A stretch of 64,000 bases of DNA from Latilactobacillus sakei subsp. sakei DSM 20017 = JCM 1157 (GTDB lineage: Bacteria > Bacillota > Bacilli > Lactobacillales > Lactobacillaceae), in contig NZ_AP017929.1 in the NCBI RefSeq assembly GCF_002370355.1, positions 1,302,001 through 1,366,000 of the forward strand, written 5' to 3'. The stretch's first letter is position 1; the number at the start of each line of letters is the position of its first letter. This document shows, one piece after another, positions 11,776 through 28,242 of the stretch. The translations under genes were made by a program, and so were the position numbers. The notes beneath the pieces were generated by a model. That model was not told the DNA's origin. It did not search any database and was given only the letters and a program-made list of their open reading frames with translations.

Positions 11776-14773
<2,998 letters not shown>

Positions 14774-14774
<1 letters not shown>

Positions 14775-16177
14775 TGACAGAAGAGACGACGATGCCCCAA
14801 TTTGAGAACTATGATTACGGCTTTAGCGATGATGTTGAACCCGTCTTTTCAACCGGCCGGGGCTTAACTGAAGATGTTGTGCGCGCAATTTCGCACGAGA
14901 AAAAAGAACCCCAATGGATGTTAGACTTCCGTTTAAAATCATTCCATGCTTACGAAAAAATGCCAATGCCCGATTTTGGCCCAGATTTATCCGGTCTTGA
15001 TTTAGAGCATATGTTGTATTACCAAAAGGCAACTGATAAACAATACCGCGATTGGGAAGATGTCCCTGATAAAATCAAGGATACTTTTGACCGCTTAGGG
15101 GTTCCAGAGGCTGAACGGAAATACTTAGCTGGTTCAAGTGCGCAATATGAATCAGAAGTGGTTTACCACAATATGCGCGATGAATTTGAAAAGCTGGGGA
15201 TTATCTTTACCGATATGGATACTGCCTTGCGCGAATATCCCGATATTGTGAAGGAATACTTCAGTACTTTGGTTAAACCAACCGACAATAAATTCTCAGC
15301 GCTCAACTCGGCTGTCTGGTCTGGTGGGACTTTCATCTACGTACCAAAAGGCGTGCGGACGGATATTCCAATCCAATCATACTTCCGGATTAATGCTGAA
15401 AATTCAGGCCAATTCGAACGGACATTGATCGTTGTTGATGAAGGCGCCAGTGTTAACTATGTCGAAGGCTGTACCGCACCAAGTTATTCAAGTGATAGCT
15501 TGCACGCTGCGGTCGTTGAAGTCTTCGTTAAACGGGATGCTTACTGTCGATACACAACGATTCAAAACTGGTCGAAGAATGTTTATAGTTTGGAAACCAA
15601 ACGGGCCCAAGCCATGGAAAACGCGACAATGGAATGGGTTGATGGGAATCTCGGTTCTAAAATGACCATGAAATACCCAAGTGTCTACCTCGATGGTGAA
15701 GGCGCACGGGGGACAATGCTGTCAATCGCTGTTGCCGGCGAAGGCGTTGACCAAGACAGTGGTGCCCGGATGATTCACGCCGCACCAAATACGTCTTCAT
15801 CAATCGTTTCAAAATCGATTGCCAAAGACGGGGGCGCAGTTGATTACCGAGGGACTGTTCGTTTTGAACGAGACAGTGACGGTTCTTTTGCCCACGTCGA
15901 ATGTGATACGATTATTATGGATGATAAATCCAGTTCCGACACGATTCCGTATAATACAATCTTAAACGGGAACGTCTCAATGGAACATGAAGCCAAAGTC
16001 TCCAAAATTTCAGAAGAACAACTCTATTACTTGATGAGCCGTGGCATCTCGGAAGCCAAAGCAACCGAAATGATCATCATGGGCTTCGTCGAACCATTCA
16101 CCAAGGAACTCCCAATGGAATACGCGGTGGAATTGAATAGATTGATTAGCTATGAAATGGAAGGGTCCGTGGGCTAG
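14774..16177 (+). CDS. sufB: Fe-S assembly scaffold protein SufB
   Basis: Core scaffold on which the Fe-S cluster is built with SufC and SufD. Conserved family parts are [42 protein letters not shown] and the C-terminal [20 protein letters not shown]. The Cys in VEGCTAP is a conserved position of the family. It is 467 aa, usual for SufB. It is the last gene of the operon, with a terminator right behind it. The start at 14774 shares one base with the sufU stop; an in-frame ATG further in ([10 protein letters not shown]) is a weaker alternative. Confidence 0.96.
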
Positions 16178-16180
16178 AAA

Positions 16181-16222
16181 AAAGGCTGTAACTCCTTATC
16201 TATCAGGGGTACAGTCTTTTTA
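16181..16222 (+). terminator. Terminator of the suf operon
   Basis: Stem AAAGGCTGTAACTCC paired with GGGGTACAGTCTTTT (one mismatch and one G-U), then TTATT. It begins four bases after the sufB stop. Confidence 0.85.
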
Positions 16223-16384
16223 TTATAGATTTATTTTTATTTTTGCCAGATGGAGATATAGTATAAAATTATTTGTATTTGAAAATAGAAGTGAAATATC
16301 TATAATGAGTAGCCGCCAAACTCAAAAAATTGATATGATATGTATAAAGGCAATTTTCATATAATGAATTATTGGGGTGATTAA

Positions 16385-17002
16385 ATGAATTTTAGAACGG
16401 TAATAGTGGCAATGATAGCTTTTTTTGTCGGCATATCTTTAACTTTAATGGGACTTTCGTTTAATAAAGGGGATTTTGGGAGTGTTGCTGATTGGGTAAG
16501 CGGTGTAGGATCTATTTTTGCGATTGTGGCTGTATATCAACAGATAAAACAATCTGATAAGCAGTATCGCTTGGATAAACAATCGAATTTACTTATTGCT
16601 TCAGGTATAAGGAAAATAAAGAACACTGATGAAAATGGAATAGAGATAACTACTAGTAAAGAAGAATTGTTGTTCTGGGGAACAAACGATGGAAATACAG
16701 CAGGATCATTTAAATTTATCGGGATATGCACTAAGAAACAATATTTAGAAATAATCAATTCCGAACATGATAACTTAAAAAGTAAAAATATAGATAACTA
16801 TATTATTGATCCCGTTCTTGAAGTGGTTATAGGATTAGAAGAAAGAAAATTTGAGTTAATAGAACCGCATTGCGTTTCTAGTGAAATTTCTATACCTTTA
16901 GAATATATTAATAATAATTGGTCTAAAGATAGAGAGATTTGTTTAGTTTATATGGATGCAGTTGGGAATCTATACAAAAAAGATATTATAAAGGCTGTCT
17001 AA
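16385..17002 (+). CDS. Hypothetical membrane protein of the accessory island
   Basis: Not recognised as a named family. The 205-aa protein has two predicted N-terminal transmembrane segments (about residues 5-25 and 36-52) and then a soluble, charged region beginning QQIKQSDKQYRLDKQ, followed by a mixed alpha/beta part. This layout (two helices, then a short coiled stretch) is common in small proteins of phage and defence islands. The gene is much richer in A and T than the suf genes before it and uses more AAA and ATA codons, which fits recent acquisition. ATG 16385 has a GGGGTGA site. It lies upstream of the broken NTPase gene in the same direction; a functional link is only a guess. Confidence 0.7.
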   Translation: MNFRTVIVAMIAFFVGISLTLMGLSFNKGDFGSVADWVSGVGSIFAIVAVYQQIKQSDKQYRLDKQSNLLIASGIRKIKNTDENGIEITTSKEELLFWGTNDGNTAGSFKFIGICTKKQYLEIINSEHDNLKSKNIDNYIIDPVLEVVIGLEERKFELIEPHCVSSEISIPLEYINNNWSKDREICLVYMDAVGNLYKKDIIKAV

Positions 17003-17233
17003 CTAATAGAAACTTGTTACTACTTAATCGGTACTGTGTCAGTATCGATTAAAGATGTATGGTACATCGACTAGGTGATAATTTAAAGAAAATTTAATGC
17101 ATATAATATACTATGCATTAACTAATGTATATTGGTAAGTTAATCATTATTAAAAATAATTAAGTGTAGGGAATGTTAGGTTTTATCGAGTAAGGTAAAT
17201 GTATATTAAAATTAATTGTGGGGGGAGTATTTT

Positions 17234-18017
17234 TTGGAGAAGAATTTTGAATCGTTAACACCGAAAAATGATATTGATATATCAACATATGAGGAGGCTT
17301 TAAGTTTTGCCCTAGCCGAAAAGACAATTACGAATATTGCGTTGACAGGTCCATATGGTGCAGGTAAAAGCTCTGTTATTGAATCTTACAAAATGAAACA
17401 TCCGGAAAAGGGCTTTATGAATATTTCCTTAACGCATTTTGAAGGGAATGAAGTAACTGGGACAAATATTTTAGAAGGTAAGATAATAAATCAGTTGTTA
17501 CATCAAATTGATTATAACAAAATTCCTCAAACCATATTTAAAATAAAGAATAATACTAAAAAATCGACATTATGGAAATATACGATACTAATATTAGTAT
17601 TTATATGCAGTGCACTGTTGGTTGTCAAATTTAAAAACTGGACAAGATATCTAAATGGTTCGTTTACTAATAAAAATTCTGGTAAGTTAGTTATGAACCT
17701 AGTGAAATTTTTATCTAGTGAGCAGTTTAATTTAATAGTATTGTGTATATTTACTGGGAGTATCGTATTTTTTATGTATAGTATTATTAAATTCCAAATA
17801 AACAAGCAATTTTTAAAAAAATAACGATAAAAGGAAATGAAATTGAAATATTTCAAGATCAAAATGAATCATATTTTGATAAATTTATGAATGATGTAAT
17901 ATACCTTTTTACGAGTTCTGGAAAGAACGTAGTCATTTTTGAAGATTTAGATAGATTTAATAATCCAACGATTTATGAACGCCTTTATGAAATTAATTTA
18001 TTAGTTAATAAGAGATT
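17234..18017 (+). pseudogene. YobI-type P-loop NTPase, N-terminal fragment (frameshifted, cut by IS)
   Basis: N-terminal part of a large membrane-associated P-loop NTPase resembling B. subtilis YobI. From TTG 17234 (GGGGAG seven bases upstream) it reads MEKNFESLTPKNDID and then Walker A GPYGAGKSS. Two hydrophobic segments follow at about 17565-17640 and 17735-17805. The frame stops at 17824 because the A run at 17815-17821 has seven A; eight would keep it open. In the next frame the protein goes on (ITIKGNEIEIFQDQN) to Walker B VVIFEDLDRFNNPTIYERL and to INLLVNKR, where the IS element at 18018 cuts it. The remainder is at 20242-23185 on the other strand. The region is AT-rich compared with neighbours. 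Confidence 0.85.
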
Positions 18018-18049
18018 TGCTCCTATGTCAATAAATGGCACATCTTTTT

Positions 18050-18817
18050 CTAAACACTCGTTCTAATTCTGTCGGAATTAAACCAACTGATGTAATTTGA
18101 GGTTCGGATTACCAAGTCCTCAAAATTGGAAAAAGTTGTTTGAAAGGCAAACTCTCTCTTCAACAATGAGTGAAAAGCTTCAATTGGCCCATTATCATAA
18201 GGATAACCTTGTTTTGAGTATGAGTGGCTAATCTGATGCCGTTCAAGTAAAGTTTCAACTTCGTTGCTGGTGTACTGTGAACCCATGTCAGAGTGAAAAT
18301 ATTGTGGCTTTTGATGATATTCAAGCGCCTGATTAATCGTTTCTACAACTAACGTCGCCTCCATCTGACGACCAATCTTGAAAGCAAGAACTTGATGAAC
18401 CTTTGGTTCGTAAATAGAACTGAGATAAACCCAGGTTCCTGGACGTAATTCCAAATAAGTAATGTCAGCACGCCATATCCTTGCATTGGGCTGGTGCTTG
18501 ATTAAATTGGGGCGTTGTGAATGATCCACATGAGTGCCAGGTTTTTTAAATCGCCGATTCATTAAAGAGTGAATCTCCATTTCCCTCATTAATCGTAAAA
18601 TTCGTTTTGACCCAACACAGATGCCTGACTTGCGAAGCACCATCGTTATTCGTGGATAACCATAGGCACGATAATTATTTTCCCAAATCAATTTAATTTT
18701 TTCTTTGAGTTGATTATCAACACGTTCGTGTTGACTAGGTTGATATCTTTTCCAATGGTAATAGGTGCTGCGCGGTAATTTCAGTGCCGAAAGAATAATT
18801 GATAAGCGGTGTCGCAA
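18050..18817 (-). CDS. IS3-family transposase OrfB (copy 1)
   Basis: Catalytic half of the transposase with the rve/DDE integrase core. The triad is visible: D in WRADITYLEL, D in FHSDMGSQYTS and E in NGPIEAFHSLLKREF. An HTH_21-like region precedes it (YRAYGYPRITMVLRKSGI). In the cell it is normally made as an OrfAB fusion by -1 frameshifting, so the start at the TTG (18817) is only the first start-like codon in the open frame, which continues upstream towards the slip site. Confidence 0.93.
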   Translation of the reverse strand: MRHRLSIILSALKLPRSTYYHWKRYQPSQHERVDNQLKEKIKLIWENNYRAYGYPRITMVLRKSGICVGSKRILRLMREMEIHSLMNRRFKKPGTHVDHSQRPNLIKHQPNARIWRADITYLELRPGTWVYLSSIYEPKVHQVLAFKIGRQMEATLVVETINQALEYHQKPQYFHSDMGSQYTSNEVETLLERHQISHSYSKQGYPYDNGPIEAFHSLLKREFAFQTTFSNFEDLVIRTSNYISWFNSDRIRTSV

Positions 18818-18855
18818 TAACTGATCTTCTATGAAGACAAGGCAATTAATTCGTC

Positions 18856-19119
18856 CTAATGCTTTCCCAGTAACACCGCCGCAGCTTTTAAAATTTCGAG
18901 TTCCTCCTTTAATCGCTGATTTTCCTTTTGAAGTTGTTTGAATTCTTTGGACGTTACTTCAGTACCGTCTTCTAGCTCAACTGATTTAGCGCCTTTAACC
19001 CAGTTATGAATTGCGGCTGGAGAAACACCGTATTCCTCGGAAAGCGAGCGAATAGATCTTTTCTCTTCACGATGCATCTTCACAATGCTGGCTTTAAAAT
19101 CATCTTGATATCGTTTCAT
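18856..19119 (-). CDS. IS3-family transposase OrfA (copy 1)
   Basis: Small DNA-binding protein of the IS, 87 aa. It has a helix-turn-helix (RSIRSLSEEYGVSPAAIHNWV) and then a leucine-zipper-like coiled coil (LQKENQRLKEELEILKAA) as in IS3 OrfA proteins. The slippery heptamer TTTAAAA near its 3' end lets ribosomes shift by -1 into orfB. ATG 19119 has GGAGCATTCC upstream. Confidence 0.93.
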   Translation of the reverse strand: MKRYQDDFKASIVKMHREEKRSIRSLSEEYGVSPAAIHNWVKGAKSVELEDGTEVTSKEFKQLQKENQRLKEELEILKAAAVLLGKH

Positions 19120-19365
19120 TGGAATGCTCCTATCTTGTTTTATTAATTATGGCACAACTGTTCAGAAATTTATGTACCAAATACTAGGGTAGGAGCAATT
19201 TTATTACTGCTAATATCTTACAACAGAAAAAAATTAAATAACATTCTTGACATGCATCTTAATCACACTAGATTTCTAAAATCGCTCCAATAAACATTGT
19301 GAGCAATTACATTGTCCCGACTTCTTGAAGATGTTATTTTTAAGTTAAAGAAGGAGGTGTTGAAT

Positions 19366-19572
19366 ATGAAGACTTTAGACAATATCGCTCTTGCCTTATT
19401 AATCGTAGGCGGTTTAAACTGGCTACTTGTTGGTTTATTTAAATTCGACCTTGTGGCTATGCTATTTGGCGGCCAAGCAGCTATTATTTCACGAATTGTT
19501 TATGTCCTAGTTGGACTAAGTGCGCTCTACTGTATTAAATTATTTGCTAATATCAATAACATGGCACGTTAA
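19366..19572 (+). CDS. DUF378 family small membrane protein
   Basis: A 68-aa protein with two transmembrane segments (about residues 5-25 and 36-58). The family signature is clear in LLIVGGLNWLLVGLFKFDLVAMLFGG. I chose ATG 19366 because AAGGAGGTG lies 8 bases upstream; longer in-frame extensions lack a ribosome binding site. The function of DUF378 is unknown. In the rebuilt arrangement it would face away from the gene at 24385, on the other side of IS copy 2. Confidence 0.88.
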   Translation: MKTLDNIALALLIVGGLNWLLVGLFKFDLVAMLFGGQAAIISRIVYVLVGLSALYCIKLFANINNMAR

Positions 19573-19581
19573 TAACATGAA

Positions 19582-19607
19582 AAAAGCCCTCATTTGAGGG
19601 CTTTTTT
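19582..19607 (+). terminator. Terminator after the DUF378 gene
   Basis: GCCCTCA / TGAGGGC stem with a short loop, flanked by an A run and a T run. Confidence 0.9.
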
Positions 19608-19737
19608 TGATGGCTATATTTTAAAAGTTTTAGGTCACTAGCCTTAGGTAAAGTAAATAAGAAAAAAACTAACGCGTGAGGTTCATTCTATTATATTTAG
19701 GCTTTTTAAATTACTTAAATTAAGATCGTACTTGCAG

Positions 19738-19943
19738 ATGAGTAGCCGTAAATCATTCTGCGAATTCTGCACAGAACAAAAGATGGTCTTAAAATGTTAT
19801 CGCATTGACGGCCAATACAGTTACCCGTTGAGGTCGTCGCCAAAAATATGACTGTTCTAGAAGACCTCATTAACGAAACAATGCAATTTGAAACCTCATC
19901 GACACATATTGCATTCTCGGTAGCCAATGATGTGCTGGTGTAA
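19738..19943 (+). pseudogene. Remnant of an Lrp/AsnC-family regulator (C-terminal domain)
   Basis: Two short open stretches in different frames give the C-terminal ligand-sensing (RAM) domain of an Lrp/AsnC regulator. The first reads RKSFCEFCTEQKMVLKCYRIDGQ and the second VEVVAKNMTVLEDLINE followed by TSSTHIAFSV. This fits the family pattern of 'ecyritG', 'vvakdm..le.fine' and 'tsTsivls'. A frameshift lies near 19825. The N-terminal helix-turn-helix is missing. The rest of the 19,608-20,241 stretch (about 630 bases) shows no other gene; it is AT-rich with scattered stops. Confidence 0.7.
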
Positions 19944-20241
19944 TACAAGAAAATCGATTTCTATTCTTTGCATTCAACTTATTTTGAAAGTCATTTAATT
20001 AAATCTAAGAATAAATAGACGATAGATTAACAAAATTGACTAAACGAACAAAAAAATGCGTCAAAGTGTTCACTTAACTTATAATTTTAGCTTTACACTT
20101 GTATCATAAAATGAAAAGGATATTTTAAGAAAATTTTATATTCAGAAGAAAAATAAAACTATATAGAAATATCCATTCACTATTGTAATAGTTAAAAAGA
20201 ATCTTCACATATTATTTATATAAATTTACTTTACTAAGCAA

Positions 20242-23185
20242 CTATAAAATTCTCTTCCCATAAACTCTATATTCTCCATCTTCTTCATGGATTCTATTAA
20301 TATAATTTCTATCTAAATACGTATCTAAAATTAGTTTGTTTATTTTATTAACTTCAAATTTAGGTCTTTTCCCCTTGAGTACATTAATAAACTCAATAGG
20401 AAAGTCTAACTTTTTAATGAAAACTAACAGTTCATTAAAAGTCATCATTTCAACATTGACAGCAAATAACAACTTCTTATTTTCAGTTTGCTCATCTAAT
20501 AATAGTCGTACCAATAATGCCTTATCTACTACATACTCATTTTCAATGATTATATTTATATTCTCTAAAGCTCTATCATATATAGCCTGTTGTAATTTCG
20601 TATTTACGTTAGCGTATGAACTTATTAACTCAGGTAAATCACTTTCTTTGAACTTATGCTGAACTATATAAGCCTTAATATCCTTAGGATAGCTACTATT
20701 TAAAATTGATATATTTTCCTTTGAAGTATCAATTAACCCTTTCTTTTCTTTTTCAGTTAGGTTTTCATTTGCTATTAATTTAATTAATACCGATTGATTG
20801 TAACAATCCTCTTGACCAAAAACATCTATAAAAGTATTCATATCACGTTTTACAAACGCGTATACGACCTCCTCATATTTTTTCATAATAGCTACAATAT
20901 TTGGCATAGTAACTTCTATTATTCCGGCTAGAATTAGTTCTTTTATTTTCTCTATCTGGATACCTTCTTTATTAAATCCATCCTTATATACTAATTCAAA
21001 AGATTTCAAAATCGATATATATTTATGCGTATCTATACTATTCTTAATAACCAGGTTATCGTAGAGACTTGATAATATTTCTTCGGCATATCTACCTTTA
21101 ATCGTTTGAAAATTTAATTCAATATTATTCGTATTTATTTTATCAACAAGACTATCATTCACTTGATTTTCACTAAGAAGAAAATATTCAATAATATTCT
21201 CTTCGCTAACTAAGATATTTCCTGAGTCAAATAGCATTTTTCTCTGTGACAAATCTTTTACAGAGTTAATCTCATTTATTTTTTTAGGTAATTCTAATCG
21301 ATCAATAACACCACTGCTATTTTCACTAGATAAACTAGGATTATTCATTAATTCCACTATTATTTCTGGAGTTTCACGTAATAATTCGTTAGATAAACTT
21401 AAATATAGATTAATGTATTCATTTAATTGATTTTCATATATGTTTACCTTAAGAATTTCTTCTGATAATAATAGAGATATATTATCAGAATAAAATCTTT
21501 TGTTAATATCCAGTTCATAAACCATAAAAGCATTTTTCAGATTATTTTCTGAAAGGTGAAACATATTTAGTTCTACTATTTTTTTCGTTTGAATTTTTGT
21601 TGCATTTATTTCCATGAATTTTATATTTAATTTACTTAACCTTTTTAAATAGTCCTCTGAAGGTATATCACTTACTTTTAAATATTCTTCAAAATCACTA
21701 GATTGCTCAATAAAATCTTTAATCTTAATTGTTGAATCATTATCCTTAACACTCGAATCAGAAAAATAGAATATAGCAATATAAATAAATTCCTCTATTT
21801 TTAATCTTTTTTCTAAATTTAATGAAATTAAATCTTTAAGAACTAAATTCCACTTAGACTCCAATATTCCGAAGAAGTTCAAAAGTTTCTTTTCCTCTTT
21901 AAATCGTTCATAGATATCTAGTATATATACACTAGATTCACTATTTCTAATAACATTAAATATCGCTGTAACCTCGGAGTCATATTTATCCATATTTTCA
22001 ATATAAAATATAGATAAGTCTAAATTCAATACTTTAAATCTAATTAATTCTTCAACTGATAATTCAGTCGTTATTCTGTCAAAATTAGTTAGACTATAAG
22101 TCCATTCCTTCGGTCTTCTATCATAGATTCCTCTTAAAAATTCTTTGTCCTCAATATTTAAGTTATTTTCATAAAAATACGTTAAATAATCTGTATAATT
22201 TTCATCAATTAACCCTTCTCTAACGATAAATATAATCAAATCAAAATATGGACTTTTAATAAGATTTTCATCGCATTCAAGTTTATTGATAAAGTCGTTA
22301 AGATCAATCTCTGAAGAAAGCAATACATCAGACATGGATTCACTATATACTTTCTCCATTCTTAATTTTAGTTCTTCTTTTTTATTAATTAGATTTGTTC
22401 TTTTGGTGCTTTCCTTATTATTCAGATTATTTAACTTAACAAGATATTCCTTTTTATCTTTTAATTCTTCAAATATCCCTGAAATATTCTTAGCCGATAG
22501 TGTAGTTTTGAGCTCTGACGAGTAGTATCCGGATGTATATGTTGCTTGTTTAACGTCAAAACTATTATTCTTAATTGCTGCAATGAAATCTGACCGATTT
22601 TCAAAGTCTGATTCTTTTTTTTCATTAACTGTATAGAATCCGTCTGTAGGATTCTTTAAAAATAAAGCATCTAACTCATTGACCGAATTTAATGTCTCAA
22701 TCTCAGAATCTTCTAATTGCTTTTCTAGGTTACTAATTTGCTTTTCTATCTTTTCTATTATATCTTGAATTAAACTACTCTTTTTTGAAAATATTTCATT
22801 AATAAACCCAATCCCTAATTGAAATTTAGAAAAGTCTTTTGGAAATAAATTTTTATAAATAATTGTAGCGAGTAATTTATTATTATCCAAAGTAATTTCT
22901 GAAAGCCTATCCTTATAAATTAAATATTCATTACTGATATTTTTTAGTAGTCTCATATCATCGATATAAAGAGACAGTTTTCTTAAAACCTTAATATCAA
23001 AATCGTTAGATATTCCAGCATCTTTAAAAGTCTGTATGAATTGTTCAAAAGAGTTTGACGAATCTATAACTGGAATTATTGGAATTATAAAATCAAATAA
23101 CTTAGTTCTATCTTTTGAAGTAAATGCATCATCCTTAATTAGATAAATAAACTTAATCTGATTCTTTTTCTTATTAACAGCTAAT
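20242..23185 (-). pseudogene. YobI-type P-loop NTPase, C-terminal fragment
   Basis: The open frame runs on the minus strand from the IS junction at 23185 to the stop at 20242, about 980 aa. The first ATG is at 22956, but coding continues upstream as LAVNKKKNQIKFIYLIKDDAF and KLFDFIIPIIPVIDSSNSF, which continues the NTPase domain of the fragment at 17234. The rest is helical, rich in Lys, Glu, Asn and Leu, with a coiled coil near residues 65-90 of the ATG form (IEKIEKQISNLEKQLE). No domain is recognised in the long C-terminal part. YobI-like proteins are large NTPases of unknown role, suspected of defence or conflict functions. Without the Walker A part it is unlikely to work. Confidence 0.82.
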
Positions 23186-23263
23186 TGCTCCTACCCTAGT
23201 ATTTGGTACATAAATTTCTGAACAGTTGTGCCATAATTAATAAAACAAGATAGGAGCATTCCA

Positions 23264-23527
23264 ATGAAACGATATCAAGATGATTTTAAAGCCAGCATTG
23301 TGAAGATGCATCGTGAAGAGAAAAGATCTATTCGCTCGCTTTCCGAGGAATACGGTGTTTCTCCAGCCGCAATTCATAACTGGGTTAAAGGCGCTAAATC
23401 AGTTGAGCTAGAAGACGGTACTGAAGTAACGTCCAAAGAATTCAAACAACTTCAAAAGGAAAATCAGCGATTAAAGGAGGAACTCGAAATTTTAAAAGCT
23501 GCGGCGGTGTTACTGGGAAAGCATTAG
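23264..23527 (+). CDS. IS3-family transposase OrfA (copy 2)
   Basis: Identical in sequence to OrfA of copy 1: 87 aa, helix-turn-helix followed by a coiled coil. The slippery heptamer T TTA AAA is at 23491-23497, so -1 shifting at this site leads into the orfB frame. Removal of the stop at 23525-23527 by the shift would give an OrfAB transposase of about 350 aa. Confidence 0.93.
   Translation: MKRYQDDFKASIVKMHREEKRSIRSLSEEYGVSPAAIHNWVKGAKSVELEDGTEVTSKEFKQLQKENQRLKEELEILKAAAVLLGKH
23491..23497 (+). promoter_or_regulatory. Predicted -1 frameshift slip site (T TTA AAA)
   Basis: Heptamer of the X XXY YYZ type in the orfA frame. orfB is open in the -1 frame from here to 24333 without a stop. The same site exists in copy 1 on the minus strand. 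Confidence 0.7.
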
Positions 23528-23565
23528 GACGAATTAATTGCCTTGTCTTCATAGAAGATCAGTTA

Positions 23566-24333
23566 TTGCGACACCGCTTATCAATTATTCTTTCGGCACT
23601 GAAATTACCGCGCAGCACCTATTACCATTGGAAAAGATATCAACCTAGTCAACACGAACGTGTTGATAATCAACTCAAAGAAAAAATTAAATTGATTTGG
23701 GAAAATAATTATCGTGCCTATGGTTATCCACGAATAACGATGGTGCTTCGCAAGTCAGGCATCTGTGTTGGGTCAAAACGAATTTTACGATTAATGAGGG
23801 AAATGGAGATTCACTCTTTAATGAATCGGCGATTTAAAAAACCTGGCACTCATGTGGATCATTCACAACGCCCCAATTTAATCAAGCACCAGCCCAATGC
23901 AAGGATATGGCGTGCTGACATTACTTATTTGGAATTACGTCCAGGAACCTGGGTTTATCTCAGTTCTATTTACGAACCAAAGGTTCATCAAGTTCTTGCT
24001 TTCAAGATTGGTCGTCAGATGGAGGCGACGTTAGTTGTAGAAACGATTAATCAGGCGCTTGAATATCATCAAAAGCCACAATATTTTCACTCTGACATGG
24101 GTTCACAGTACACCAGCAACGAAGTTGAAACTTTACTTGAACGGCATCAGATTAGCCACTCATACTCAAAACAAGGTTATCCTTATGATAATGGGCCAAT
24201 TGAAGCTTTTCACTCATTGTTGAAGAGAGAGTTTGCCTTTCAAACAACTTTTTCCAATTTTGAGGACTTGGTAATCCGAACCTCAAATTACATCAGTTGG
24301 TTTAATTCCGACAGAATTAGAACGAGTGTTTAG
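23566..24333 (+). CDS. IS3-family transposase OrfB (copy 2)
   Basis: Identical to OrfB of copy 1, with the DDE motifs ADITYLEL, HSDMGSQY and NGPIEAFHSLL. The listed start is TTG 23566; in the fusion form translation enters the frame at the slip site near 23491. The C-terminus ends FNSDRIRTSV. An intact triad suggests an active transposase. Confidence 0.93.
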   Translation: MRHRLSIILSALKLPRSTYYHWKRYQPSQHERVDNQLKEKIKLIWENNYRAYGYPRITMVLRKSGICVGSKRILRLMREMEIHSLMNRRFKKPGTHVDHSQRPNLIKHQPNARIWRADITYLELRPGTWVYLSSIYEPKVHQVLAFKIGRQMEATLVVETINQALEYHQKPQYFHSDMGSQYTSNEVETLLERHQISHSYSKQGYPYDNGPIEAFHSLLKREFAFQTTFSNFEDLVIRTSNYISWFNSDRIRTSV

Positions 24334-24384
24334 AAAAAGATGTGCCATTTATTGACATAGGAGCAAATGTCAGGAGCGAGTTGA

Positions 24385-24672
24385 ATGAAACAATTTGAAC
24401 CAGCACGGATTAATGATCAGTATTCTTTAACGTTAAATGAGACTGGGAACGTCATGTTGTCTAAAGTAGGCGTTGGTATTGTGGGACAGATGAGTTATTA
24501 TTACACGCGTAACGATTTACCGTTGTTTATTTGTCGTCACGAACCACGTGCGGATCTAAGAACAATTCATGATGTGATGGTTCAATTGGACGCCCAGCTG
24601 GCAGAAATGGTCGGTTGCGGCTGTTTAATGGTTGGTGGTCAGAACGTGGCACTGCAATGTAGAACGGTCTAA
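24385..24672 (+). CDS. Conserved hypothetical protein
   Basis: I do not recognise this 95-aa protein. It is soluble, with no signal peptide or membrane span. The middle has an MSYYYTRNDLPLFICRHEPRAD stretch and the end a GCGCLMVGGQNV motif with two cysteines. Base composition is like the core genome, unlike the NTPase fragments to the left. ATG 24385 has CAGGAGCG upstream. IS copy 2 ends 19 bases before the start, so its own promoter has most likely been displaced. A strong terminator follows. Confidence 0.7.
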   Translation: MKQFEPARINDQYSLTLNETGNVMLSKVGVGIVGQMSYYYTRNDLPLFICRHEPRADLRTIHDVMVQLDAQLAEMVGCGCLMVGGQNVALQCRTV

Positions 24673-24675
24673 TTA

Positions 24676-24715
24676 AAAGAAGCCACGCTATCTAATGGAT
24701 AGTGTGGCTTCTTTT
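24676..24715. terminator. Bidirectional terminator between convergent genes
   Basis: Long stem AAAAGAAGCCACGCTATC / GGATAGTGTGGCTTCTTTT with a 4-base loop. A and T runs on both sides allow termination in both directions; the genes on either side converge on it. Confidence 0.93.
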
Positions 24716-24727
24716 GTAGAAAGCTAT

Positions 24728-25156
24728 TTATCTTGTCAAATGTAAAATCGGATATGGTTTATCAAAGCCATCTCGCTGACTCCGTGATACAACTGTAAAA
24801 CCGTGCTTTAAGTAGAACGCTTTGGCACGTTGATTTTGTTCGTTTACATCAATTTTATTAATCCGTTGATTATTGATTAGCCAGTCTAAGATTTGATGGC
24901 CATACCCGCCACCAATGTAATGAGGGTCGAGAAATAGCATCTCTAATTCTTGACCGTTGGTACCACTAAAACCAATAGGTTGGTTATCTAGTGACCAGAT
25001 TCTGAGAACCGTTTGATCCAGGAATTGGGGGATTTGTGTTTTATAAAAGGTTACGTCTTCAGGTTGTAAGAAATTATGCGTCGCTAAAACGGACTGTTCC
25101 CAAATATCGAGGACTAGCGCATAGTCTGAGGTGGTTGCTAATTGATTCGATAACAT
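24728..25156 (-). CDS. GNAT-family N-acetyltransferase
   Basis: A 142-aa single-domain acetyltransferase. The acetyl-CoA pyrophosphate-binding loop is seen as GGGYGHQILDWL, after the beta strand LEMLFLDPHYIG; the later part VNEQNQRAKAFYLKHGFTV is typical of motif B of the fold. The substrate is unknown. It is a monocistronic gene convergent with the hypothetical gene at 24385. The ATG at 25156 is the only good start. Confidence 0.88.
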   Translation of the reverse strand: MLSNQLATTSDYALVLDIWEQSVLATHNFLQPEDVTFYKTQIPQFLDQTVLRIWSLDNQPIGFSGTNGQELEMLFLDPHYIGGGYGHQILDWLINNQRINKIDVNEQNQRAKAFYLKHGFTVVSRSQRDGFDKPYPILHLTR

Positions 25157-25504
25157 TTTATGACCTACTTTCAGTTTATTAATAGATTAAATTAAATGGT
25201 TCTCGAAGTCAATTAAGTGATTAATAATGTCCTTTTTAGTCATTTTTAAAGATATGAATGCTGTTTAACCCTTTCGGTTAGGCAGTATTTTTTTATTGGG
25301 GAAATGCGCTGATATATAATGATGAGAGATCGACATCATTTTATGCGGTTTTATTTAATAATATCAACTTTACGAATTGTGATAAAATGATGAAAATTGT
25401 GAACTGAATTTAGATAATTTAAATATTTAGCGTCGATATCCGAACGAATTACGTATATTTGTGATAAAATATTAGCAAATGAACGGTTATTAGGAGGCGG
25501 TCTG
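25157..25504. other. Intergenic region upstream of folB
   Basis: No gene is seen in these 348 bases. It holds a terminator-like hairpin at 25258-25295 (ATGCTGTTTAACC / GGTTAGGCAGTAT, two G-U pairs, then a T run) and two copies of the extended -10 motif TTGTGATAAAAT near 25377 and 25460. The second is about 35 bases before folB and is the likelier promoter. Confidence 0.6.
25258..25295 (+). terminator. Orphan terminator-like hairpin
   Basis: Thirteen-bp stem with a 5-base loop and a T run on the plus strand. No plus-strand gene ends just before it, so it may be an attenuator or a relic. Confidence 0.6.
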
Positions 25505-25855
25505 ATGTATCATATTAAAATTAATAATATGCAGTTTCATTCGCATATTGGTGTTTTTCAAGCTGAGAAGGATCTAGGTCAGCGTATTGAAATTGATTTA
25601 AAGGTGGCAATTATGACGCCTTATCAAGGAGACGAATTAACGGATACGGTCAGTTATGCTGATTTTTATGAAGTGATTGCCCAATTAATCGCCAAATCAC
25701 GCGCTAATTTGGTCGAAACAATCGCTCATGAGATTATCCAGGCAATTCACGCCCTTGATCCTGATCGGATTGGCTTAGTTGCGGTTAAGGTGCGCAAGAT
25801 TGCGGTGCCAATTGAAGGTATTTTTGACCATGTCGAAATCGAGATGGAGGGTTGA
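25505..25855 (+). CDS. folB: Dihydroneopterin aldolase FolB
   Basis: Cleaves 7,8-dihydroneopterin to 6-hydroxymethyl-dihydropterin and glycolaldehyde in folate synthesis. It is 116 aa and has the family pattern: MQFHSHIGVFQAEKDLGQRIEIDL at the start, TVSYADFYEVI in the middle, LVETIAHEI and the terminal VKVRKIAVPIEG with the catalytic Lys. The AGGAGG site before ATG 25505 is strong. It starts an operon of six folate-related genes with overlaps or short gaps. Confidence 0.95.
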   Translation: MYHIKINNMQFHSHIGVFQAEKDLGQRIEIDLKVAIMTPYQGDELTDTVSYADFYEVIAQLIAKSRANLVETIAHEIIQAIHALDPDRIGLVAVKVRKIAVPIEGIFDHVEIEMEG

Positions 25856-25857
25856 GT

Positions 25858-26382
25858 TTGAGCAATCAAGTTTATATTAGTTACGGCAGTAATATGGGTG
25901 ATTTAAAGGCGAATATTAACCAGGCGCTAGCCCTTTTGACAGTCGATTCGAAAATTCAAATTGAACGCCGGTCAGCCTTTTACCAAACCGCGCCGGTGGG
26001 TCCAGTTGAACAGGCCGATTTTATCAACGGCGCTTTAAAAATCAGTACCGATTATACGCCGGATCAGTTGTTGGTTGTCTTACATCAAATTGAGCGGGCG
26101 TGTCGGCGTGAACGAACAATTCACTGGGGACCGCGGACGTTGGACCTAGATATTATTTTCTTTAATGAGCTGGTCTTACAAAGTGATACGTTAGTGATTC
26201 CCCATCCAGAAGCTTTCAAGCGACTATTTGTGCTAGTGCCAATCCTAGAAATCTGTGGGGCCGACTTTTATCAAAAAGCTGCGATTGAAATCCAGATTGA
26301 TGTCTTGAAGCAGGATCAAACCCAGACGATTAAACGATTAGAAGAGGTAAACGATGATAGAACAAGCAAATCAGCAAATTGA
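25858..26382 (+). CDS. folK: 2-amino-4-hydroxy-6-hydroxymethyldihydropteridine pyrophosphokinase FolK
   Basis: Transfers pyrophosphate from ATP to hydroxymethyl-dihydropterin, making the substrate of FolP. Key motifs are SYGSNMGDLKANI at the N-terminus and the signature ERTIHWGPRTLDLDIIFFN. The start is most likely TTG 25858, because GGAGG at 25846-25850 is then seven bases away; TTG 25852 would be too close. It lies two bases behind the folB stop and overlaps folE by 29 bases. Confidence 0.94.
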   Translation: MSNQVYISYGSNMGDLKANINQALALLTVDSKIQIERRSAFYQTAPVGPVEQADFINGALKISTDYTPDQLLVVLHQIERACRRERTIHWGPRTLDLDIIFFNELVLQSDTLVIPHPEAFKRLFVLVPILEICGADFYQKAAIEIQIDVLKQDQTQTIKRLEEVNDDRTSKSAN

Positions 26383-26923
26383 AAAAGATGTGCGTGATAT
26401 TTTAAAGCAAGTTGGCGATGATCCTGAGCGTGCTGGCGTGTTAGAAACCCCACAACGAGTCGCTAAAATGTACGGAGAAGTTTTGGCGTATCAAGGAGAA
26501 ACCATCTTTAAAGACTATAAGTTGTTCGAAACTGAAGAGACCGACGATGATCAGATGGTGATGATGCAGGACATTCCGTTTTATTCAATGTGTGAGCACC
26601 ACATGTTGCCCTTTTTTGGTCAGGTCAGTGTGGCCTATTTGCCAGCCAATGGGCAGATTATCGGCTTGAGTAAAATTCCCCGGTTAGTGGATTTCGTTTC
26701 AAAAAGATTGAGTGTTCAGGAGAATTTAACGCGTGATATCGGACAAATTTTAAATCAAATATTAAAGCCACACGGGGTTGCGGTTCAAGTGACGGCGCGC
26801 CATATGTGTGTTGAGATGCGCGGCATTAAGAAGGCCAATAGTCAGACCCATACGACTTTTTACAGCGGCAATTTTAAAACCGACCGCCAATTACGCAGCG
26901 AATTTCTACAACTATTGAAATAG
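26354..26923 (+). CDS. folE: GTP cyclohydrolase I FolE
   Basis: Converts GTP to 7,8-dihydroneopterin triphosphate, the first step of folate synthesis. It is 189 aa and has the zinc-binding FYSMCEHHMLPFFGQV (Cys and His ligands) and the later HMCVEMRGIKK with the third ligand. YEXSRXPRLVDF-type sequence appears as SKIPRLVDFVSKRLSVQE. It begins inside the folK gene; the ATG at 26354 is preceded by AGAGG. Confidence 0.96.
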   Translation: MIEQANQQIEKDVRDILKQVGDDPERAGVLETPQRVAKMYGEVLAYQGETIFKDYKLFETEETDDDQMVMMQDIPFYSMCEHHMLPFFGQVSVAYLPANGQIIGLSKIPRLVDFVSKRLSVQENLTRDIGQILNQILKPHGVAVQVTARHMCVEMRGIKKANSQTHTTFYSGNFKTDRQLRSEFLQLLK

Positions 26924-26934
26924 GGGATTTTAGT

Positions 26935-28242
26935 ATGCAAGATGAGGAAATGGTCACACAATTACCAGGGATGTTATATGGTGAAGACGAGCGGGTGACG
27001 CTCTTGCGCCAGATTTTAAAAGCGATGGGGCAGCCAGATCATGCTTTTTCGATTATTCATGTGTGCGGAACGAATGGCAAGGGCTCAACGAGTGCGATGA
27101 TTGCGGCAATTCTGCAAGCATCCGGCTACTCCGTGGGGTTATTTACGAGTCCGCACATCATGGCAGTCGAGGAAAGTATTCAGATTAACCGGCAGTTGAT
27201 TTCAAAAGCGCAGTTTGAGCGATTATTGGCGACGGTCCAAACCGTTTTAAAAAAACTTGGCTTTGATCCGACGACGGACTTATCGTACTTTGAAACATTA
27301 GTATTGGTGGCGTTGGTCTATTTTAAGCAGCAACAAGTCGATTATGTCCTGTGGGAATGTGGCTTGGGTGGCGAGTTAGATGCAACCAATGCGGTTGATC
27401 GATTGGCCTACACGCTATTTACGAAGATCAGTCTCGATCATATGGCGCTATTGGGCGATACGATTGAAGCAATCGCTACGACTAAATCCAAAATTATCCG
27501 GCCACAGACACCGGTTATTGTGGCTCCCGAACAAACGAAAACGGCTTTGCACGTTTTAGAGGCTGAAGCTAAGCGGCAATCAGCACTGCTTCAGATTGCC
27601 CCTCGTGATTGGTTCGTGACAAGTCATCCAACCAGTGCTGGCCAAGAAGTGACGGTTAAATTACCAGAGCGTGAACCATTAACGGTTTCTTTGGCATTGG
27701 CGGGGACCTATCAATTAGAGAACCTGCTAACGGTATTGACGTGGTATCGGCAGTTTTGTCGTGATCAAGGGCACGCGGTAGACGAAATCGTCTTACAACG
27801 TGCTTTGGGGCAGGTCCGCTTACCAGGCCGCTTTGAGCGCCTGGCAACGGAACCGCTAGTCGTGATTGATGGTGCCCATAATCCGGATGGCATTCGGCAG
27901 TTTGTCCGGAGTGTCCAAGAACGCTATGGTGGTTACGATTTAACGATTGTAACTGGCTTTTTAAAAGATAAGGCGGTTGCTGAATGCTTGCAGCTTTTAA
28001 CGCAACTACCAGCGCGGTTTATTTTAACGACCCCCATCAATCAAGATGACCGACAATTACCAGTTGCTGAATTAGGGGCGCTATACACGCAGATAACAGG
28101 CCAAACAGCACCTGAATATCCAGCAATTGAAGCGGCTTTAAAGGCGGCTAGTCAACCTGCAACGGGGAATAAACCGCAAGTCATCTTAGTTGTAGGGTCA
28201 TTTTATTTATTAAAGACAGTTCGGCAACACTTTTTGAGCTAG
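26935..28242 (+). CDS. folC: Dihydrofolate/folylpolyglutamate synthase FolC
   Basis: ATP-dependent ligase of the Mur ligase fold. It adds glutamate to dihydropteroate or folate. The P-loop is CGTNGKGSTSAMI near residue 44, followed by GLFTSPHI, ECGLGGELDATN and the C-terminal VIDGAHNPDG. It is 435 aa, as usual. It sits between folE and folP, which suggests it also serves as the dihydrofolate synthase of this pathway. Confidence 0.94.
   Translation: MQDEEMVTQLPGMLYGEDERVTLLRQILKAMGQPDHAFSIIHVCGTNGKGSTSAMIAAILQASGYSVGLFTSPHIMAVEESIQINRQLISKAQFERLLATVQTVLKKLGFDPTTDLSYFETLVLVALVYFKQQQVDYVLWECGLGGELDATNAVDRLAYTLFTKISLDHMALLGDTIEAIATTKSKIIRPQTPVIVAPEQTKTALHVLEAEAKRQSALLQIAPRDWFVTSHPTSAGQEVTVKLPEREPLTVSLALAGTYQLENLLTVLTWYRQFCRDQGHAVDEIVLQRALGQVRLPGRFERLATEPLVVIDGAHNPDGIRQFVRSVQERYGGYDLTIVTGFLKDKAVAECLQLLTQLPARFILTTPINQDDRQLPVAELGALYTQITGQTAPEYPAIEAALKAASQPATGNKPQVILVVGSFYLLKTVRQHFLS

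What the first reader, a model, noticed from the sequence alone, without database searches (positions are those of the whole stretch)
17234..24365. YobI-type NTPase gene split by an IS and then inverted between two IS copies
Two identical-length (1,180 bp) IS3 elements lie in opposite orientation. The N-terminal NTPase piece on the plus strand ends at IS copy 1 (18017), and its continuation is on the minus strand ending at IS copy 2 (23185). Flipping the segment between them and removing one IS plus one ATT rejoins ...INLLVNKR with LAVNKKKNQIKFIYLIKDD, in frame. The reassembled coding length (784 + 2,941 + 1 A) is a multiple of three. The 3-bp flanks (ATT and AAT) fit both before and after the flip. 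This is strong evidence for insertion followed by homologous inversion, and the segment may still be able to flip.
Basis: partly seen in the sequence, partly recalled or inferred. Interest (0 to 1): 0.8.

Follow-up and report, generated by a model that had tools for sequence, protein, structure and literature searches.

The report
Defence gene broken by IS-driven inversion
A phage-defence-like ATPase gene in this lactic acid bacterium was cut by a jumping gene, and the four-kilobase stretch between two copies of that jumping gene was then turned around, a well-known kind of genome damage that leaves the gene dead in either orientation.

Summary
Two identical 1,180-bp IS1163 (IS3-family) copies lie in opposite orientation at 18018-19197 and 23186-24365. 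They bound a segment that carries the C-terminal four-fifths of a YobI/Tmn-type membrane P-loop NTPase gene (minus strand) and a small DUF378 gene. The N-terminal part lies outside, on the plus strand. Two independent comparisons support the inversion. (1) The pieces hit consecutive stretches of the YobI-ATPase and Tmn profiles, and in 19 of 19 homologous loci examined the parts flanking the break lie in order in one reading frame. (2) A congeneric genome without IS1163 (G005) has the DUF378 gene in the opposite orientation, next to the gene that follows IS copy 2; turning the segment back gives an 87-nt exact match across that junction, the present order gives none. The NTPase gene sits on a low-GC island that G005 lacks. 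A separate frameshift at an A7 run breaks the gene too, and an IS stays inside it in both orientations, so the segment is not an on/off switch for this gene. Most likely history: two IS1163 insertions, then homologous recombination between them. Misassembly of the orientation, or a mixed population, cannot be excluded without reads. Ordinary mechanism; new instance.

The parts
16182..16187 (+). AAGGCT, left edge of the low-GC island after sufB (same hexamer as 19640-19645 on the other strand)
   Evidence: Alignment with G005 breaks here; the two matches end at L058 8911 and 8916 and overlap by 6 nt
16385..17002 (+). island gene, 205-aa protein with an N-terminal membrane segment; no Pfam family over cut-off; no match in the stretches fetched around 19 homologous loci
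17234..17821 (+). N-terminal piece 1 of the YobI/Tmn-type NTPase: Walker A GPYGAGKS and two hydrophobic segments
   Evidence: PF20693 1-175, E 5e-32; Tmn 25-97; hydropathy
17815..17824 (+). A7 run and the stop that follows: frameshift within the NTPase gene
   Evidence: the E. faecium homologue runs through
17821..18017 (+). N-terminal piece 2, other frame, Walker-B-like VVIFEDLDRF; ends at IS copy 1
   Evidence: PF20693 175-236, E 1.1e-20; Tmn 257-303
18015..18017 (+). ATT, left flank of IS copy 1
18018..19197 (-). IS1163 copy 1 (IS3 family), two open frames at 18856-19119 and 18050-18817
19198..23185 (.). inverted segment between the two IS copies (3,988 bp)
   Evidence: orientation opposite to G005
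19198..19645 (.). ancestral chromosomal stretch inside the segment: DUF378 gene, its upstream region and a terminator-like stem; 94% identical to L058 8459-8916
   Evidence: terminator-like 19607-19580 minus strand
19366..19572 (+). DUF378 gene (68 aa), intact
   Evidence: PF04070 E 1e-26; G005 homologue 100% over 65 aa, 68 aa long there too
19640..19645 (-). AAGGCT, other edge of the low-GC island
20242..23185 (-). C-terminal part of the NTPase gene, 980 codons without a stop
   Evidence: PF20693 239-362, E 2.9e-46; Tmn 308-1057, E 7.9e-29
23183..23185 (+). AAT, left flank of IS copy 2
23186..24365 (+). IS1163 copy 2, open frames at 23264-23527 and 23566-24333
24366..24368 (+). AAT, right flank of IS copy 2
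24385..24672 (+). 95-aa gene, no Pfam or NCBIfam match; IS copy 2 ends 19 nt before its ATG and separates it from its ancestral upstream region

Best explanation
A YobI/Tmn-type (KAP-like) membrane NTPase gene on a low-GC island beside the suf operon was interrupted by IS1163. A second IS1163 inserted in the opposite orientation between the DUF378 gene and the next gene. RecA-type homologous recombination between the two identical copies then turned the intervening ~4.0 kb around. Shown: the split, the IS identity, the inverted state relative to an IS-free congeneric genome, the frameshift in this assembly, and, from the anatomy, that an IS stays inside the gene in both orientations. Inferred: the order of events, that homologous recombination did it, and that the intact gene was an anti-phage defence gene. 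The flip should be reversible in principle, but without consequence for the NTPase gene.
For: Identical inverted IS copies. Three pieces consecutive on the PF20693 and Tmn profiles. In 19 of 19 homologous loci examined piece N2 and the start of piece C are in order in one open frame; in 16 of 19 all matched parts of the three pieces share one open frame (the 19 are 11 of the 13 other Lactobacillaceae genomes over the cut-off, one E. faecium plasmid, and 7 of 7 loci). In G005 the DUF378 gene is divergent from and next to the homologue of the 24385 gene, and the turned-back junction at the copy-2 site matches G005 exactly over 87 nt, whereas 12 nt across the present junction (6+6) are not found on the same strand of that G005 stretch. 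G005 gave flank matches but no IS1163 match. Four of the five IS1163 copies found in this genome have matching 3-bp flanks, as simple insertions should.
Against: No reads: the orientation of a 4-kb segment between 1.18-kb identical repeats can be set wrongly by an assembler. The genome collections hold one genome per species, so no second strain of this species was seen in either orientation. The flanking triplets do not distinguish homologous inversion from a replicative one, because both insertions share the triplet AAT. At the gene junction the window has one residue more than the E. faecium homologue, an ordinary length difference but not an exact fit.
Confidence: 0.8

Rival explanations
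1. Assembly artefact: the chromosome really has the ancestral order with two IS1163 insertions, and the assembler placed the segment the wrong way round (or the culture holds both orders).
For: The repeats are identical over 1,189 nt including flanks, so short reads cannot fix the orientation; flanks fit both ways.
Against: The genome is in 2 contigs, one of 1,936,922 bases, as expected of a finished assembly in which 1.2-kb repeats are normally bridged; no read data were available to test it.
Confidence: 0.15
2. One insertion in the NTPase gene followed by intramolecular replicative transposition of the same IS, which makes the second copy and the inversion in one step.
For: Predicts identical IS copies in inverted orientation at the ends of an inverted segment and the same flanking triplets as seen.
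Against: IS3-family elements are held to move through an excised circle (copy-out/paste-in, recalled), which does not itself yield adjacent inversions.
Confidence: 0.06
3. A working invertible switch that turns the NTPase (defence-type) gene on and off.
For: Perfect inverted repeats around a segment that holds most of a defence-type gene.
Against: In either orientation a 1,180-bp IS separates the two parts of the gene, and the A7 frameshift lies outside the segment and is present in both. No recombinase was recognised in the segment: of its open frames the NTPase part and DUF378 were scanned; three short frames of 77-108 aa were not.
Confidence: 0.02

Closest known systems
IS1163 (IS3 family) of lactic acid bacteria
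   Same: 1,180 bp at 99.9% identity to plasmid copies in Latilactobacillus sakei and L. curvatus annotated as IS1163; two open frames with IS3-family transposase hits
   Different: nothing of note
Inversions by recombination between oppositely oriented IS copies (a textbook event, recalled)
   Same: segment bounded by identical inverted copies, opposite to the order in a relative
   Different: both breakpoint insertions share the target triplet, so no flank mismatch betrays the inversion; one breakpoint lies inside a gene, which does
YobI-ATPase (PF20693) / Tmn anti-phage NTPase (PADLOC PDLC02220)
   Same: Walker A, two hydrophobic segments between Walker A and a Walker-B-like motif, long C-terminal region; profile hits over the Pfam cut-off
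   Different: broken here by an IS, an inversion and a frameshift; the Tmn match of the C-terminal piece ends at residue 732 of 980; in the passages I read, the tests of Tmn were in E. coli, not in this subfamily
Homologue on Enterococcus faecium plasmid NZ_CP044319
   Same: best-covering relative among the plasmid records (44%, 74%, 63%, 35% over successive pieces); also interrupted by an IS
   Different: interrupted by IS256, about 55 residues further on, with the rest on the same strand, not inverted

Membership tests
IS3 family (IS1163) | two open frames, second with DDE integrase core | tested here: met
   OrfA HTH_Tnp_1, OrfB rve/HTH_21; NF033516 transpos_IS3 221.2 bits vs cut-off 160 for OrfB, 44.3 for OrfA alone; OrfB frame open from 23425, overlapping OrfA
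IS3 family (IS1163) | imperfect terminal inverted repeats, TG...CA ends, short target duplication | tested here: met
   TGCTCCTA at both ends; 3-bp matching flanks at 4 of 5 copies, not matching at the fifth
YobI-ATPase PF20693 | profile match over the curated cut-off, collinear across the pieces | tested here: met
   112.3, 74.9 and 159.1 bits vs cut-off 27; positions 1-175, 175-236, 239-362
Tmn defence NTPase | match to the PADLOC Tmn profile | tested here: met
   PDLC02220: E 2.1e-13, 2.6e-10, 7.9e-29 at 25-97, 257-303, 308-1057 of 1273; no cut-off is given, so this is a family-level match only
Tmn defence NTPase | KAP-like NTPase with two transmembrane segments | tested here: met
   Walker A at residue 39, hydropathy peaks at about 111-129 and 167-185 of piece N1, Walker-B-like motif in N2; description of Tmn from a passage of PMC11846954
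Tmn defence NTPase | protects cells from phages | not testable with these tools
   gene is broken here; would need an intact relative tested in a laboratory strain
Homologous inversion between IS copies | segment order opposite to an IS-free relative, with restored junctions after turning back | tested here: met
   copy-2 junction: 87-nt exact match to G005; gene junction: homologues continuous in 19 of 19. That the agent was homologous recombination is inferred
Site-specific invertible (phase-variable) switch | gene intact in one orientation and a dedicated recombinase | tested here: not met
   IS stays inside the gene in both orientations, frameshift outside the segment; no recombinase recognised in the frames scanned

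The most novel reading that the evidence does not exclude
Genes of this YobI/Tmn subfamily are repeatedly silenced by IS elements in Lactobacillales (IS1163 plus inversion here, IS256 on an E. faecium plasmid), because an intact copy is costly when phages are absent; and the segment here still flips in culture.
Probability: 0.08. Interest if true: 0.4.

Novelty: new member of a known kind. Interest (0 to 1): 0.2.

Why it matters
It corrects annotation: apparently unrelated gene fragments on opposite strands are one dead defence-type gene, and gene-order comparisons of this locus will mislead unless the inversion is recognised. It is a clean example in which matching target duplications hide an inversion that only the interrupted gene and a relative's gene order reveal. 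It also shows IS1163 as an agent of gene loss in this genome (another copy stands in place of parts of yycH and yycI).

Tried and rejected
The first genome-contig scan with the C-terminal piece found no relative and the viral-contig scan found none; the genome-contig scan with a two-row alignment found 7. In the genus 0 of 5 other genomes held the C-terminal piece, and the YobI profile found none in those 5 either.

A conserved partner gene: the 205-aa upstream protein matched nothing (E <= 1e-3) in the stretches fetched around 19 homologous loci (stretches of 8-19 kb, some with little upstream DNA, so a partner there could be missed). I dropped the two-gene idea.

Target triplets as proof of the inversion: rejected, because both models give the same flanks and the two insertions share the triplet. 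Promoter scan: 37 sites found against 47.3 expected in shuffles, so no promoter claim is made. Solved structures: no sequence match for the C-terminal piece. No structure was predicted, because the question did not turn on the fold. Papers: 'YobI' matched 539 papers, of which the 15 listed were unrelated by title; 'YobI-ATPase' gave none; 'IS1163' gave 4, seen as a listing only; searches on L. sakei inversions gave 4 and 7 papers, seen as listings, none on this locus by title; the five-term search on inverted IS and phase variation gave none; 'Tmn' gave 2, of which passages of one were read. I therefore make no claim that this locus is absent from print.

Two of the 13 other Lactobacillaceae genomes over the YobI cut-off (G241, G340) were not carried into the frame count.

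Full report
What is there. The window lies in a 1.94-Mb genome in two contigs. In 14000-28000, at a minimum length of 30, the only repeat found is a perfect inverted pair of 1,189 nt (18012-19200 and 23183-24371) with 3,982 nt between the arms. Its core is two 1,180-bp IS copies, exact reverse complements, at 18018-19197 (minus) and 23186-24365 (plus), flanked by ATT/ATT and AAT/AAT. Plasmid records carry the same element at up to 99.9% identity, annotated IS1163 (122 records matched), and the open frames match IS3-family transposases. Five copies were found in this genome, all on contig 1 and all 100% identical. Four of five have matching 3-bp flanks; the fifth, at C1:488418-489597, does not.

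The broken gene. On the plus strand 17234-17821 and, in another frame, 17821-18017 match the YobI-ATPase profile at positions 1-175 and 175-236. The minus-strand stretch 23184-20245 matches it at 239-362. The PADLOC Tmn profile gives the same order: 25-97, 257-303, 308-1057. Piece N1 has a Walker A motif and two hydrophobic segments, N2 a Walker-B-like motif, the layout described for Tmn as a KAP-family NTPase with two transmembrane domains (a passage of PMC11846954). In 19 of 19 homologous loci examined, piece N2 and the beginning of piece C lie in order in one open frame. In 16 of 19 all matched parts share one open frame. The three others: the E. faecium plasmid copy (L067), where N1, N2 and the first 53 residues of C share a frame and the rest follows behind an IS256; L076, where N1 is in other frames; and L087, where a stop codon cuts N1 off from N2 in the same frame. 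The 19 are 11 of the 13 other Lactobacillaceae genomes over the cut-off, the E. faecium plasmid and the 7 loci. At the junction itself the window has one residue more than the E. faecium protein. The C-terminal part has no stop in 980 codons, which suggests that the damage is recent. Homologues that run unbroken to the C-terminus exist, for example L082 and L083.

A second lesion. The N-terminal frame ends at 17822-17824 just after an A7 run, and the homology continues in another frame. It lies outside the invertible segment. It could be a sequencing error; it cannot be checked here.

The inversion, by an independent route. In the congeneric genome G005 (91-96% identical DNA around the locus; no IS1163 match) the order is sufB, then the DUF378 gene on the opposite strand with its terminator-like end next to sufB, then the homologue of the 24385 gene, 194 bp away and divergent. 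In the window the DUF378 gene faces the other way and is separated from that gene by the NTPase part and IS copy 2. Turning the segment back and leaving the IS and one triplet out of the comparison gives an 87-nt exact match to G005 across the junction; across the present junction even 6+6 nt are not found on the same strand of that G005 stretch (alignment). This does not depend on the NTPase gene at all.

The island. G005 lacks the 205-aa gene and the NTPase gene at this place; its sequence runs from the end of sufB straight to the DUF378 terminator, and the NTPase search found nothing elsewhere in G005. The extra DNA has 26-28% G+C against 43-44% in the flanks. It is bounded by AAGGCT on both sides in ancestral order, which may be a small duplication or a shared hexamer. 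In the genus, 0 of 5 other genomes had the C-terminal piece.

How it came about. The most likely history is acquisition of the island, insertion of IS1163 into the NTPase gene, insertion of another copy in the opposite orientation upstream of the 24385 gene, and homologous recombination between them. The order of the steps and the mechanism are inferred. The flanking triplets do not help: both insertions have AAT in the orientation of the IS, so flanks match before and after, and a replicative inversion would leave the same flanks. AAT and ATT make up 3.1% and 3.5% of triplets in the window. The four copies with matching flanks all have A/T-only triplets (AAT, AAT, TAA, TTT), so sharing one is a mild coincidence.

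What it does. In either orientation an IS lies inside the NTPase gene, and the frameshift stays. The flip cannot turn this gene on. The DUF378 gene moves with its own upstream region and terminator and should be unaffected (inference). IS copy 2 separates the 24385 gene from its ancestral upstream region in both orientations. A functional switch is therefore unlikely.

What remains open. Without reads, a mis-oriented assembly or a mixed culture cannot be excluded. No other strain of the species could be searched.

Verdict. What is new is the instance and the recognition that the fragments are a dead Tmn/YobI-type gene.

Noticed in passing
G000 C1:488418-489597 (L004, L080); G005 L079: The IS1163 copy with non-matching flanks (AGG/ATC) stands in place of 750 bp that are present in G005 (a similar gap shows against G001): residues 367-475 of YycH and 1-135 of YycI are not found beside it, so both regulators that go with the WalRK two-component system (role recalled) are truncated.
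   Followed up: partly
L067 5688-10784 (NZ_CP044319.1): The best-covering homologue among plasmid records, on an Enterococcus faecium plasmid, is itself interrupted by IS256 about 55 residues after the position of the break in the window.
   Followed up: partly
window 16182-16187 and 19640-19645: AAGGCT at both edges of the low-GC island in ancestral order; no integrase or transposase besides IS1163 was recognised on the island, so how it arrived is unknown.
   Followed up: no
window 19660-20241: About 580 bp of the island without a convincing gene; 19660-20000 has no second copy in the genome.
   Followed up: partly
G001 contig 1: A congeneric genome holds five IS1163 copies at 99-100% identity, although the DNA that flanks copy L004 in the window genome is only 75-77% identical there, pointing to recent horizontal spread of the IS.
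   Followed up: no
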